Made by a program: the position numbers and the translations under genes. From NCBI GenBank assembly GCA_031082155.1, contig JAVHLL010000029.1, positions 1-35,852 of the forward strand: 35,852 bases of DNA, in the 5' to 3' direction. The stretch comes from Thermodesulfovibrionales bacterium. Lineage in GTDB: Bacteria > Nitrospirota > Thermodesulfovibrionia > Thermodesulfovibrionales > SM23-35. Numbering within the stretch: position 1 is the stretch's first letter; the number at the start of each line of letters is the position of its first letter. Positions 20,878 through 35,040 of the stretch are shown in pieces. The notes below the pieces were generated by a model. The model was not told the origin of the DNA and ran no database searches. It was given only the letters and a program-made list of their open reading frames with translations.

Positions 20878-20907
20878 TTGACTCTGCAACAGGAAGAGAG
20901 ATACCAT
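20878..20907 (+). promoter_or_regulatory. Candidate promoter of the Cys-rich small ORF
   Basis: TTGACT (20878-20883), an 18-nt spacer and TACCAT (20902-20907) end 7 nt before the ATG at 20915. This matches the SD-less layout seen elsewhere in the window. Confidence 0.35.
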
Positions 20908-20914
20908 TTATGGA

Positions 20915-21097
20915 ATGAGGCCACAGGCATTCACAGGCAAGAATCCGGGCACGGATAACACGATAGATCCGGGCAAAAAGATCTGGTGCAGGAAATACGG
21001 GTGCTGGAAGCATGTGAAGGTGTGTCAGCAGTGCGGTATCCAGTACCGGTGCATTGAATTCAAGAGATATCTGATACCACCGCTTTTTGAATTGTAG
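20915..21097 (+). CDS. Small cysteine-rich protein (60 aa)
   Basis: The frame encodes MRPQAFTGKNPGTDNTIDP followed by a cluster WCRKYGCWKHVKVCQQCG and then YRC. Five cysteines in about 25 residues, with a CxxC, suggest a metal-binding knuckle. No family was recognised. Evidence that it is real: an ATG start, a candidate TTGACT/TACCAT promoter immediately upstream, and a composition unlike a chance frame. There is no Shine-Dalgarno sequence. It lies between tRNA-Ala (opposite strand) and rarA, 69 bases before the latter. Confidence 0.5.
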   Translation: MRPQAFTGKNPGTDNTIDPGKKIWCRKYGCWKHVKVCQQCGIQYRCIEFKRYLIPPLFEL

Positions 21098-21131
21098 TAT
21101 CGTGTTCCACAAACAATAAGTGCCGCTGAAC

Positions 21132-21160
21132 TTGAAATTTTTTCTTCCATAAGTGAACAT
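21132..21160 (+). promoter_or_regulatory. Candidate rarA promoter
   Basis: TTGAAA (21132-21137), a 17-nt spacer and GAACAT (21155-21160) end 6 nt before the rarA ATG. The -10 is weak (3 of 6), but the spacing is that of the genes at 31610 and 35005. Confidence 0.35.
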
Positions 21161-21166
21161 ACACGC

Positions 21167-22399
21167 ATGGACCTCTTCAAGAAAGAAACGACCGGCCAGC
21201 CTCTTGCCTTCCGTATGTGTCCAAGGACACTTGAAGAATACGCAGGACAGCAGCATATCCTCGGAGAAGGGAAACTGCTGCGCAGGGCCATCGAAGCCGA
21301 CAGGATTTCTTCAATCATCCTCTACGGTCCGCCGGGAACAGGAAAAACCGCGCTTGCGCGGGTGATCGCCGAAAAGACTAAGGCACACTTCGAATGGCTG
21401 AACGCAGCGACCATCGGGATCGACGAGATCAGGAAAGTCATACAGAATGCAAAGACAAGAAAAGCACGTGGTGTAAGGACGATCCTCTTTCTTGACGAAA
21501 TCCACCGCTTCAACAAACTCCAGCAGGATGCGCTTCTGCCTGATGTTGAAGAAGGCAATATCATCCTCATCGCGGCAACGGTCGAAAACCCGTTCTTCTA
21601 TGTAAACTCCGCCCTCCTGTCGAGAAGTCAGATTTTCGAACTGAAACCGTTGACTGAAGATGACCTCCTGTTTGTCCTGAAAAACGCCCTGCGGAATAGT
21701 GAACGTGGTCTCGGCAGCATGAAGATCAGCATAGATGAGGGGGTATTGAAACATATCACCAGGATGTCTGACGGTGATGCAAGAAAGGCCCTCTCCGCGC
21801 TTGAACTCGCATGTCTCACAACCCCTCCGGATGAGAGCGGACGGGTTCATATTTCCCTTGCAATCGCAGAGGAGTCCATCCAGAAAAAGGTCATTGTCTA
21901 TGATAAAAAGGGCGACCAGCATTACGATACCATCTCTGCATTCATCAAGAGCATGAGGGGTTCAGACCCCGATGCCGCCGTCTACTATCTCGCAAAGATG
22001 ATTTATGCAGGCGAAGACCCGCGCTTTATCGCAAGACGGATTGTGATCTGTGCATCAGAAGATGTCGGCGAGGCCGATCCGATGGCACTGGTTGTCGCAA
22101 CCGCCGTATTAAGGGCTGTAGAATTCGTCGGCATGCCTGAGGCCAGGATACCACTTGCCCAGGCGGTTATCCATATCGCAAAAGCGCCAAAAAGCAATGC
22201 ATGCTACAGGGCGATAGAGGCAGCGCTTCAAGATGTAGGGAATGAAGAGACTATGGAAGTGCCCGACCATCTGAAAGACAGCCATTATCCCGGTGCAAAG
22301 AAGCTTGGGCACGGAGAAGGATATAAATATCCCCATGACTTTGGAGGATATATCGAACAGGACTACCTGAAAAAAAAGAAAAAATATTATAATCCCTGA
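21167..22399 (+). CDS. rarA: Replication-associated recombination protein RarA (MgsA)
   Basis: A 410-residue clamp-loader-like AAA+ ATPase that acts at stalled replication forks. The N-terminus has PLAFRMCPRTLEEYAGQQHIL. Walker A is GPPGTGKTALAR, Walker B is LDEIHRFNKLQQDALLP, and sensor 1 is AATVENPFF. The C-terminal RarA-specific tetramerisation region includes HYDTISAFIKSMRGSDPDAAVYYLA and YPHDFGGYIEQDYL. Length and motifs are complete. The ATG lacks a Shine-Dalgarno sequence. mutS2 begins 5 bases after its stop codon, so the two DNA-maintenance genes form a pair. Confidence 0.95.
   Translation: MDLFKKETTGQPLAFRMCPRTLEEYAGQQHILGEGKLLRRAIEADRISSIILYGPPGTGKTALARVIAEKTKAHFEWLNAATIGIDEIRKVIQNAKTRKARGVRTILFLDEIHRFNKLQQDALLPDVEEGNIILIAATVENPFFYVNSALLSRSQIFELKPLTEDDLLFVLKNALRNSERGLGSMKISIDEGVLKHITRMSDGDARKALSALELACLTTPPDESGRVHISLAIAEESIQKKVIVYDKKGDQHYDTISAFIKSMRGSDPDAAVYYLAKMIYAGEDPRFIARRIVICASEDVGEADPMALVVATAVLRAVEFVGMPEARIPLAQAVIHIAKAPKSNACYRAIEAALQDVGNEETMEVPDHLKDSHYPGAKKLGHGEGYKYPHDFGGYIEQDYLKKKKKYYNP
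22388..22393 (+). promoter_or_regulatory. Possible internal -10 element for mutS2
   Basis: A perfect TATAAT lies at the very end of rarA, 11 nt before the mutS2 ATG, which has no Shine-Dalgarno sequence. The region is A-rich and no good -35 is visible. Confidence 0.25.
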
Positions 22400-33965: not shown

Positions 33966-33967
33966 AA

Positions 33968-34231
33968 ATGATTAACCCTATCAATAAAATAACAATTTTA
34001 TTGATAGGTGCACTCTTAACACTGAGTCCGGTCATCGTGCTCGGTTCAGCCTCGCCGAAAGATATCATAGAAAATGAATGCAGCAAGTGTCACTCGACAG
34101 TTATAGTCTATAGTGCGAAGAAAAGTGAAGAAGAATGGACGAAGACTGTTGACCGTATGATCAGTTATGGCACAAAGCTGCCAGAGAATGAACGTAAAAC
34201 CATAATTCATTATCTCTCAGAAAAAAAGTAG
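33968..34231 (+). CDS. Small monohaem c-type cytochrome
   Basis: An 87-residue protein with an N-terminal hydrophobic signal (ITILLIGALLTLSPVIVLGSA) and a single haem site C38-S-K-C41-H42. The C-terminal VDRMISYGTKLPENERKTIIHYLSEK matches small class I cytochromes, with Met in RMISYG as a candidate sixth ligand. It would be a periplasmic electron carrier. It follows the phospholipase-like gene after 2 bases and has no clear Shine-Dalgarno sequence, so it is probably translated by coupling. A perfect 14-bp hairpin overlies codons 4-14. Confidence 0.85.
   Translation: MINPINKITILLIGALLTLSPVIVLGSASPKDIIENECSKCHSTVIVYSAKKSEEEWTKTVDRMISYGTKLPENERKTIIHYLSEKK
33977..34008 (+). promoter_or_regulatory. 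14-bp perfect hairpin in the cytochrome start region
   Basis: CCTATCAATAAAAT (33977-33990) and ATTTTATTGATAGG (33995-34008) pair perfectly around an AACA loop. The hairpin lies 9 nt after the ATG, inside the signal peptide codons. It could influence initiation, coupling or mRNA stability. Confidence 0.5.
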
Positions 34232-34288
34232 TTGCTTCCCGACAAGCACAGTAACTTCAAGAAGTATCTTCTTAAATTTCCCCTTTTT

Positions 34289-35005
34289 TTATAAGGGCGG
34301 AGAATGCTGTTGCAAGGTTTTCCGGATCGTATCCGCGAGAAGGAAAGGCGTCGTTTTCATTTTAATAAGCAATACGTCAGCACCGCCCGTTATAACCCTC
34401 TCCTTTACTTCAGGGGTTTCTACCGCAGAAAAAATGACCACAGGAATTTTCTTCCATGCAGGGTTCTCTCTCAGTATTGAAAGAAACTCATATCCGTCCA
34501 TTGCTTCCATGGAAAGATCGAACAATATAAGGTCCGGCAGGGTCTCCTTCAGAATTCGGTGGGCTTCCCCTGCCTCCTTTGCCTCAAAAACAAAAAACCC
34601 TTCGTGCAGGAGCGTATTTTTATAAATCTGCCGGGATATTGCGTTTTCATCAATAAGAAGGATATTGCGTTTTCTGTCTGCCGCATCAACGGAGTGTTCC
34701 CGTACATGATGCACCAGTCTGTAAATTGTTTTCTTCTGCTCATCGGTCATATCCATAAACTGCAGCCCTATACCGATGCCCGGTTCATTGTGCCTGATCT
34801 GTGCTTTTACGGTTAAGGGCTTCCCTTTTATGGGAAGAGTCACCTGCACTACCCTGTTTTCTTCCAATGAACGACCGGTATAGAGATACATGCCATCTTC
34901 ACTGATGTCCATACACTGGAATGCTATTTTTCCGTCAATCAGTATGTTCCCCTGTATAGGAAATCTTTTCTTTTCCCTGCGTTCCTTTGGATTCCGGTCG
35001 CTCAT
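34289..35005 (-). CDS. PilZ domain-response regulator receiver fusion
   Basis: A 238-residue protein. An N-terminal PilZ domain (about 8-100) has the c-di-GMP-binding RxxxR region (ERREKKRFPI) and the DxSxxG motif as DISEDGMYL. A linker is followed by a receiver domain (about 113-235) with the acidic pair D119-E120 and phospho-acceptor D163 (LILFDLS). The usual KP after the conserved Lys is not clear (LLIKMKTTP). It would link c-di-GMP to a two-component signal, possibly affecting motility or envelope functions. The ATG at 35005 was chosen because a TATAAT ends 6 nt upstream. Confidence 0.85.
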   Translation of the reverse strand: MSDRNPKERREKKRFPIQGNILIDGKIAFQCMDISEDGMYLYTGRSLEENRVVQVTLPIKGKPLTVKAQIRHNEPGIGIGLQFMDMTDEQKKTIYRLVHHVREHSVDAADRKRNILLIDENAISRQIYKNTLLHEGFFVFEAKEAGEAHRILKETLPDLILFDLSMEAMDGYEFLSILRENPAWKKIPVVIFSAVETPEVKERVITGGADVLLIKMKTTPFLLADTIRKTLQQHSPPL

Positions 35006-35011
35006 ACCACC

Positions 35012-35040
35012 ATTATACTGTGCAGAGAGCCTGTCTGCAA
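35012..35040 (-). promoter_or_regulatory. Promoter of the PilZ-REC gene
   Basis: On the minus strand TTGCAG (35035-35040), 17 nt and a perfect TATAAT (35012-35017) end 6 nt before the ATG. The six bases GGTGGT between them could act as a weak Shine-Dalgarno only if transcription began further upstream. Confidence 0.5.

What the first reader, a model, noticed from the sequence alone, without database searches (positions are those of the whole stretch)
20878..35017. A set of SD-less genes with a sigma70 promoter placed 6-11 nt before the ATG: frequent leaderless mRNAs
Several genes lack any Shine-Dalgarno sequence but carry a -10-like hexamer whose end lies 6 to 11 nt before the ATG, so transcription would begin at or within a few bases of the start codon. 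Examples: PilZ-REC (TTGCAG-N17-TATAAT-N6), cardiolipin synthase-like (TTGACA-N17-AATCAT-N6), TPR lipoprotein (TTGATA-N17-TATCAT-N7), Cys-rich ORF (TTGACT-N18-TACCAT-N7), rarA (TTGAAA-N17-GAACAT-N6), small membrane protein (TTGACT-N18-TATTGT-N9), LPS kinase (TGCTATAAT-N8), and pepA (TACAAT-N11). midA (2798-2834) and the frame at 20347 fit as well. Other genes here (asd, ftsY, rhlE, ettA, tex, the Usp kinase) have good SD sites, so two initiation modes coexist. Leaderless mRNAs are known in actinobacteria, Deinococcus and archaea.
Basis: partly seen in the sequence, partly recalled or inferred. Interest (0 to 1): 0.7.

Follow-up and report, generated by a model that had tools for sequence, protein, structure and literature searches.

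The report
Leaderless genes in a Nitrospirota bacterium
In this uncultured bacterium a small but real share of genes seems to have its promoter so close to the start codon that the messenger RNA would begin at the AUG itself, a known way of starting genes that we traced in a bacterial order for which our literature searches found no report.

Summary
The window lies in a Thermodesulfovibrionales (Nitrospirota) genome. The quoted promoter strings are present. A -10-like hexamer alone proves little: 261 of 1284 ATGs in the window have one. Scored jointly (-35, spacer, -10) over 634 genes from 28.9% of the genome, promoters 5-9 nt before the start occur in 20 of 186 SD-less, unit-leading ATG genes (1.3 in shuffles), and in 0 of 161 SD-bearing leading ATG genes and 0 of 91 SD-less operon-internal ATG genes. 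Without the window: 16 of 174 against 1.3. E. coli gives 0 of 53; four order relatives together give 15 of 181 (0.9 in shuffles). Orthologues keep the arrangement: small membrane protein 43 of 59 (41 of 50 in the class, 2 of 9 outside), cls 15 of 19, TPR lipoprotein 5 of 6, PilZ-REC 6 of 9. midA, pepA and the LPS kinase are weak; the 20347 frame has 12 codons. Leaderless mRNAs are the best reading, at 2-4% of genes by this score, not a dominant mode. The kind is known; the lineage seems unreported in the library searched. No start site has been mapped.

The parts
35035..35040 (-). -35 TTGCAG of the PilZ-REC gene
35012..35017 (-). -10 TATAAT of the PilZ-REC gene, 6 nt before the ATG
   Evidence: joint promoter at gap 4-11 in 6 of 9 usable orthologues
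34289..35005 (-). PilZ plus response-regulator receiver protein, candidate leaderless
   Evidence: Pfam; joint score 9.7
31640..31645 (-). -35 TTGACA of cls
31617..31622 (-). -10 AATCAT of cls, 6 nt before the ATG
   Evidence: joint promoter at gap 4-11 in 15 of 19 usable orthologues
30447..31610 (-). cardiolipin-synthase-like gene (PLDc_2), candidate leaderless
   Evidence: Pfam; NCBIfam cardiolipin synthase models match below their cut-offs
25824..25829 (-). -35 TTGATA of the TPR gene
25801..25806 (-). -10 TATCAT of the TPR gene, 7 nt before the ATG
   Evidence: 5 of 6 usable orthologues
25398..25793 (-). TPR protein, probable lipoprotein, candidate leaderless
   Evidence: Pfam; joint score 11.3; lipobox-like start is inference
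25838..25843 (+). -35 TTGACT of the small membrane protein gene
25862..25867 (+). -10 TATTGT, 9 nt before the ATG
   Evidence: 43 of 59 orthologues at gap 4-11
25877..26125 (+). 82-aa membrane protein without Pfam or NCBIfam family, best-conserved candidate leaderless gene
21132..21137 (+). -35 TTGAAA of rarA
21155..21160 (+). -10 GAACAT (non-canonical) of rarA, 6 nt before the ATG
   Evidence: same layout in 10 of 44 sequences, window included
21167..22399 (+). rarA (MgsA_C), candidate leaderless, moderate support
   Evidence: Pfam
20878..20883 (+). -35 TTGACT of the Cys-rich ORF
20902..20907 (+). -10 TACCAT of the Cys-rich ORF, 7 nt before the ATG
   Evidence: 3 of 5 usable orthologues
20915..21097 (+). 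Cys-rich ORF of 60 codons, candidate leaderless
   Evidence: 87% identical in the same-genus genome
30309..30314 (-). TATAAT 8 nt before the Kdo/WaaP-like kinase ATG (30300), no -35; weak
   Evidence: joint score 7 or more in 0 of 7
31682..31687 (+). TACAAT 11 nt before pepA (start 31699); weak
   Evidence: 2 of 22 orthologues, the window not among them
2821..2826 (+). CATAAT 8 nt before midA (start 2835); weak
   Evidence: 4 of 27 orthologues, the window not among them

Best explanation
A minority class of genes in this Thermodesulfovibrionales bacterium is transcribed from ordinary sigma70-type promoters whose -10 element ends about 5-9 nt before the ATG. RNA polymerase usually starts 6-8 nt after the -10 hexamer (established knowledge), so the first RNA base falls on, or within a few bases of, the A of AUG. 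The leaderless mRNA carries no SD and is presumably translated by ribosomes that recognise the 5'-terminal AUG. Shown: promoter placement, its excess over shuffles and over other gene classes, its conservation. Inferred: the start site and the route of translation.
For: Own genome, 766 kb of 2.65 Mb, starts called without upstream signals: joint promoter at gap 5-9 in 20 of 186 SD-less leading ATG genes, shuffles 1.3 +- 1.1, gap 25-29 4; 0 of 161 SD leading ATG, 0 of 71 leading GTG/TTG, 0 of 91 SD-less operonic ATG genes; Fisher of the 20 of 186 against SD genes 2.4e-6, against operonic genes 3.2e-4. Window excluded: 16 of 174, shuffle mean 1.27, maximum 7 in 300. In-frame ATGs near starts 28 of 637, out-of-frame 3 of 606, p 4.4e-6. 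TANNNT peaks at gaps 6 and 7 (16 and 14; about 5 per gap at 20-44). E. coli joint 0 of 53, -10 only 1 of 53; D. deserti plasmid -10 only 8 of 42, shuffles 0.8. Four order relatives: joint 15 of 181, shuffles 0.9, gap 25-29 4; in-frame 20 of 560, out-of-frame 3 of 634. Orthologues: small membrane protein 43 of 59 at gap 4-11, but 1, 1 and 0 of 59 in three farther bins, with different promoter sequences at that place: 32 TTGAC only, 10 TATAAT/TATTAT only, 2 both, 15 neither; cls 15 of 19, TPR 5 of 6, PilZ-REC 6 of 9.
Against: No transcript data. The fraction is small: 166 of 186 SD-less leading ATG genes do not score, so other SD-less modes or miscalled starts must account for most. The zero in SD genes is partly built in, since an SD occupies the same bases; shuffles of those genes expect only 1.2. 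Column-permuted -10 matrices reach the true count in 10 of 720 cases in the own genome and 12 to 36 of 720 in the relatives. In G033 the -10 count is 5 of 40 against 4 at gap 25-29, and in G006 the joint count is 2 of 56 against 2 there. In D. deserti the joint score is 1 of 42 and in G089 0 of 24. An extended -10 G looked enriched in the 47-gene set (0.45) but not in the strict set (3 of 16, p 0.72). 16 of 59 membrane-protein orthologues do not pass, among them 7 of 9 from outside the class; some starts were probably misplaced.
Confidence: 0.85

Rival explanations
1. The genes are leadered: transcription starts farther upstream, and the -10-like strings near the ATG are chance products of A+T-rich start regions.
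For: A -10-like hexamer within 2 mismatches at 6-11 nt precedes 261 of 1284 ATGs in the window; permuted matrices sometimes reach the true count (10 of 720).
Against: Joint promoters exceed shuffles (20 against 1.3), gap 25-29 (4) and E. coli (0 of 53), out-of-frame ATGs (28 of 637 against 3 of 606), and stay in place among orthologues. For midA, pepA and the LPS kinase it remains open.
Confidence: 0.08
2. The motif is a non-SD ribosome site (A+T-rich or S1 type), a translation signal and not a promoter.
For: Such signals are known in Bacteroidetes and others (PMC3160421 section 8).
Against: It comes with a -35 at 17-18 bp in the window's genes, in cls (TTGAC 34 or 35 nt before the ATG in 13 of 19) and in the membrane protein; 0 of 91 SD-less operonic ATG genes have the joint form, where 9.8 would be expected at the leading-gene rate.
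Confidence: 0.03
3. The conserved blocks upstream of cls, rarA and the membrane protein are mainly operators of a regulator, or sites of one of the extra sigma factors, and only happen to lie by the start.
For: Conserved bases just upstream of the -10 in the membrane protein family; rarA's hexamer is far from TATAAT; six proteins with sigma70 region 1.2 in the genome.
Against: Spacing fits -35/-10; in 10 of 59 membrane-protein orthologues a TATAAT/TATTAT without TTGAC takes the place; no regulon was seen: of 7 membrane-type and 2 cls-type hits in all samples only cls itself lies 0-12 nt from a start. Either could hold on top of leaderlessness.
Confidence: 0.1

Closest known systems
TA-led leaderless genes of bacteria (Zheng et al. 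2011, PMC3160421; sections 6-8 with Table 2 read, other passages seen)
   Same: TANNNT about 10-12 bp before the start codon, no SD, more than dinucleotide shuffles give, a few percent of genes as in its Chloroflexi (4.7%) or Firmicutes (4.2%)
   Different: Lineage: the groups named in its text do not include Nitrospirae, though the members of its 'Other Bacteria' (8 of 20 genomes) were not seen. Here a -35 was scored too; that study looked at 20 bp upstream.
-10 region adjacent to ORFs in Deinococcus-Thermus (PMC12340547; passages seen)
   Same: -10 a few bp before the ORF, leaderless mRNA
   Different: There D. [quoted passage not shown] here the genes were found by -35 plus -10 and are a few percent.
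GeneMarkS-2 leaderless class (Lomsadze 2018; paper not held; summary seen in passages of PMC9581028)
   Same: predicted leaderless transcription beside SD genes, in 21.6% of bacterial species
   Different: whether any Nitrospirota are in that class could not be checked

Membership tests
Bacterial leaderless (TA-led) genes | -10-like signal ending 5-9 nt before the start codon, above dinucleotide shuffles | tested here: met
   -10 alone 29 of 186 against 6.5; joint 20 of 186 against 1.3
Bacterial leaderless (TA-led) genes | found in genes without SD | tested here: met
   0 of 161 SD leading ATG genes, Fisher 2.4e-6; partly built in, because SD and -10 would share bases
Bacterial leaderless (TA-led) genes | confined to first genes of transcription units | tested here: met
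   0 of 91 SD-less operonic ATG genes, 9.8 expected at the leading-gene rate, Fisher 3.2e-4; operons judged only by strand and a distance under 50 nt
Bacterial leaderless (TA-led) genes | AUG preferred as start codon | tested here: inconclusive
   0 of 44 SD-less leading GTG/TTG genes, Fisher 0.017, but for the -10 alone 5 of 44 against 1.6 in shuffles, and such starts are often miscalled
Bacterial leaderless (TA-led) genes | transcription start at or within a few nt of the start codon | not testable with these tools
   no RNA data
Bacterial leaderless (TA-led) genes | translated without a leader | not testable with these tools
   no ribosome profiling or proteomics
Non-SD (A+T-rich, S1-type) ribosome sites | signal also serves operon-internal genes and needs no -35 | tested here: not met
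   joint hits 0 of 91 operonic; -35 at 17-18 bp

The most novel reading that the evidence does not exclude
Leaderlessness is itself selected at particular genes in the class: the small membrane protein gene keeps a promoter 4-11 nt from its AUG while the promoter sequence is replaced (TTGACTT...GGTTATTTT in most lineages, TATAAT in others), and cls and rarA keep non-canonical -10 sequences at a fixed distance from the AUG. A defined set of genes would then be held in the 5'-AUG initiation mode for control, for example by the IF2/IF3 ratio or by altered ribosomes under stress.
Probability: 0.2. Interest if true: 0.6.

Novelty: new member of a known kind. Interest (0 to 1): 0.42.

Why it matters
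It extends predicted leaderless initiation to an order for which the searches found no report. It gives concrete, conserved test genes and warns that start prediction that looks only for SD sites can misplace such starts. The small membrane protein family is a natural experiment: the promoter sequence changes while its distance from the AUG stays.

Tried and rejected
A regulon reading of the membrane-protein-type and cls-type promoters was tested on all G-handle samples and the own sample: 7 membrane-type hits, none 0-12 nt before a called start; 2 cls-type hits, one of them cls itself. No regulon is visible. An extended -10 G as independent support did not hold in the strict set (3 of 16). 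A pattern for the 16S 3' end found nothing in the own genome, so its anti-SD was not read; the class value of 45% of mRNAs with SD in Thermodesulfovibrionia (PMC10783764 Table 1) agrees with my 47% by another definition. The T. thermophilus sample (50 kb; 7 genes in the key class, 0 hits) was too small as a control. At gathering thresholds Rfam found only the tRNA in the window. The Leptospirillum paper holds 'leaderless' only in a reference title about a protein.

Limits. Genes and starts come from a caller of my own (hexamer scores, no upstream information), which misplaced some starts, e.g. the LPS kinase (called at 29964). The promoter matrices are E. coli-like frequencies recalled from memory. 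Thresholds 5 (-10) and 8 or 7 (joint) were my choice; four joint thresholds are shown. The pooled relatives give 32 of 560 against 6 of 634 when scored with the own genome's base composition and 20 of 560 against 3 of 634 with each genome's own; E. coli in-frame is 0 of 212 or 1 of 212, out-of-frame 1 of 134 both ways. Rows dropped before the counts: membrane 2 of 20, cls 11 of 30, rarA 7 of 50, midA 3 of 30, pepA 3 of 25, PilZ-REC 3 of 12 (12 of 25 loci used), LPS kinase 1 of 8 (8 of 13 loci used), Cys-rich 5 of 10, TPR 0 of 6 (6 of 20 loci used). For the membrane protein 59 of 81 genomes with a match (29 and 72, 20 of them in both) were looked at: 39 were loci of the best scores, 20 were picked by hand across families. 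The rarA pattern was written after seeing the sequences, so 10 of 44 is a description, not a test.
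Full report
WHERE. The window is contig C32 of a 2.65 Mb genome in 56 contigs. Its rarA is 96% identical to that of a Thermodesulfovibrionales MAG, and the next hits are Thermodesulfovibrionales and Nitrospirae MAGs, so the source is most likely a Thermodesulfovibrionales bacterium of the Nitrospirota.

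OBSERVATION. The -10 alone is poor evidence for a single gene: 261 of 1284 ATGs in the window have a hexamer within two mismatches of TATAAT at 6-11 nt. The plus-strand frame at 20347 has 12 codons. pepA's start is better placed at 31699 than at 31645: its relatives align from there. Pfam confirms the kinds of the PilZ-REC, PLD-type (cls), TPR, Kdo-kinase, midA, pepA and rarA products; the small membrane protein and the Cys-rich ORF match no family.

GENOME TEST. I took 766 kb (28.9%) of the genome (and the window), called genes by hexamer score with starts chosen without upstream information, and kept 634 genes with 80 nt upstream. In SD-less leading ATG genes (186) TANNNT is found 16 and 14 times at gaps 6 and 7, against about 5 per gap at 20-44. 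A joint score (-35, spacer 15-19, -10) of 8 or more at gap 5-9 is met by 20 of 186; shuffles give 1.3, and gap 25-29 gives 4. It is met by 0 of 161 SD leading ATG genes, 0 of 71 leading GTG/TTG genes and 0 of 91 SD-less operonic ATG genes. For these three groups shuffles expect only 1.2, 0.5 and 0.4, so they lack the excess; against the leading-gene rate the zeros are significant for SD genes and operonic genes (2.4e-6, 3.2e-4) and marginal for 0 of 44 SD-less GTG/TTG genes (0.017). Leaving out the window, from which the idea came: 16 of 174 against a mean of 1.27 and a maximum of 7 in 300 shuffles. Among ATGs within 90 nt of called starts of leading genes, 28 of 637 in-frame and 3 of 606 out-of-frame have such a promoter; without the window 24 of 612 and 3 of 582. 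The excess is 4.1, 3.1, 2.9 and 2.3% of all genes at thresholds 6 to 9. Miscalled starts and promoters without a -35 should make this a low estimate (inference).

CONTROLS AND RELATIVES. The same pipeline gives 0 of 53 joint and 1 of 53 -10-only hits in 200 kb of E. coli K-12. A D. deserti plasmid gives 8 of 42 -10-only (0.8 in shuffles) but 1 of 42 joint; in D. [quoted passage not shown] The four relatives of the same order give -10-only hits of 7 of 56, 10 of 47, 5 of 40 and 7 of 38 against shuffles of 1.2, 0.7, 1.6 and 0.4, and joint hits of 2, 7, 3 and 3 against 0.3, 0.1, 0.3 and 0.2; at gap 25-29 they give 0, 1, 4 and 2 -10-only and 2, 1, 0 and 1 joint hits, so G033 and G006 are weaker than the other two. 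Two more distant Nitrospirota give 3 of 24 (0.8) and 3 of 39 (0.1) -10-only, 0 and 1 joint (all). Column-permuted matrices reach the true -10 count in 10 of 720 cases in the own genome, in 12 to 36 of 720 in the four relatives and in 512 of 720 in E. coli.

CONSERVATION OF THE WINDOW'S EXAMPLES. With starts placed by protein alignment, a joint score of 7 or more at gap 4-11 is found in 18 of 18 usable sequences of the small membrane protein, 15 of 19 of cls, 5 of 6 of the TPR lipoprotein, 6 of 9 of PilZ-REC, 3 of 5 of the Cys-rich ORF, 9 of 43 of rarA, 4 of 27 of midA, 2 of 22 of pepA and 0 of 7 of the LPS kinase; shuffles give 0.1 to 0.7. For midA and pepA the window's own gene is not among the hits. 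The rarA layout of the window (TTGAAA-like, 17-18, RAACAT, gap 5-6) is present in 10 of 44, none of them among the 9. Widening the membrane protein to 59 of 81 genomes with a match gives 43 of 59 at gap 4-11, against 1, 1 and 0 of 59 in three bins farther upstream and about 1 in shuffles: 41 of 50 within the class, 2 of 9 outside it (same genus). Of the 59, 32 have TTGAC without TATAAT/TATTAT, 10 the reverse, 2 both and 15 neither.

MECHANISM. A -10 ending 5-8 nt before the A of AUG puts the usual sigma70 start (established knowledge) on or near that A, so the mRNA would be leaderless or nearly so. How such mRNAs are translated is established for other bacteria and is inferred here. Of 47 candidates in a looser set, 27 have no same-strand upstream neighbour, against 140 of the other 371 leading genes, p 0.011. 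In the window TPR/membrane protein, cls/pepA and PilZ-REC/SpoU are compact divergent pairs, where a leaderless start saves room (inference).

NOVELTY. Leaderless genes in bacteria are well known: 207 of 953 genomes in Zheng et al. 2011, and 21.6% of bacterial species by GeneMarkS-2 as told in PMC9581028 (passages). The groups named in Zheng's text do not include Nitrospirae; the members of its 'Other Bacteria' were not seen. Searches pairing leaderless with Nitrospirae, Leptospirillum, Thermodesulfovibrio and Nitrospira, and Nitrospirota with transcription start sites, listed 11 entries, 10 different papers. Judged from titles and starts of abstracts, and for two papers from passages and one section, none reports leaderless genes in this phylum. 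The library holds open-licence papers only. So this is a known kind in a lineage that seems new for it.

Noticed in passing
window 25877-26125 and loci L339-L358, L369-L407: An 82-aa membrane protein with a match in 72 of 198 Nitrospirota genomes searched, no Pfam or NCBIfam family and a promoter kept close to its ATG.
   Followed up: partly
L001-L006 (G000 contigs C35, C34, C14, C26, C54, C1): Six matches to sigma70 region 1.2 in the own genome, while the 12 order relatives in the phylum sample have 1 or 2 each; some genomes of other families also have 6.
   Followed up: no
window 31645-31698: The pepA frame is open upstream to an ATG at 31645 that lies on the -35 of divergent cls; a longest-ORF annotation would misplace the start.
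   Followed up: yes
window 20915-21097: Cys-rich 60-codon ORF, 87% identical in the same-genus genome and weakly similar to stretches in 8 other relatives.
   Followed up: partly
L052, L057-L060, L062-L086: RarA of Omnitrophota, Margulisiibacteriota/Saganbacteria and a few other MAGs is 61-69% identical to this one; horizontal transfer is possible.
   Followed up: no
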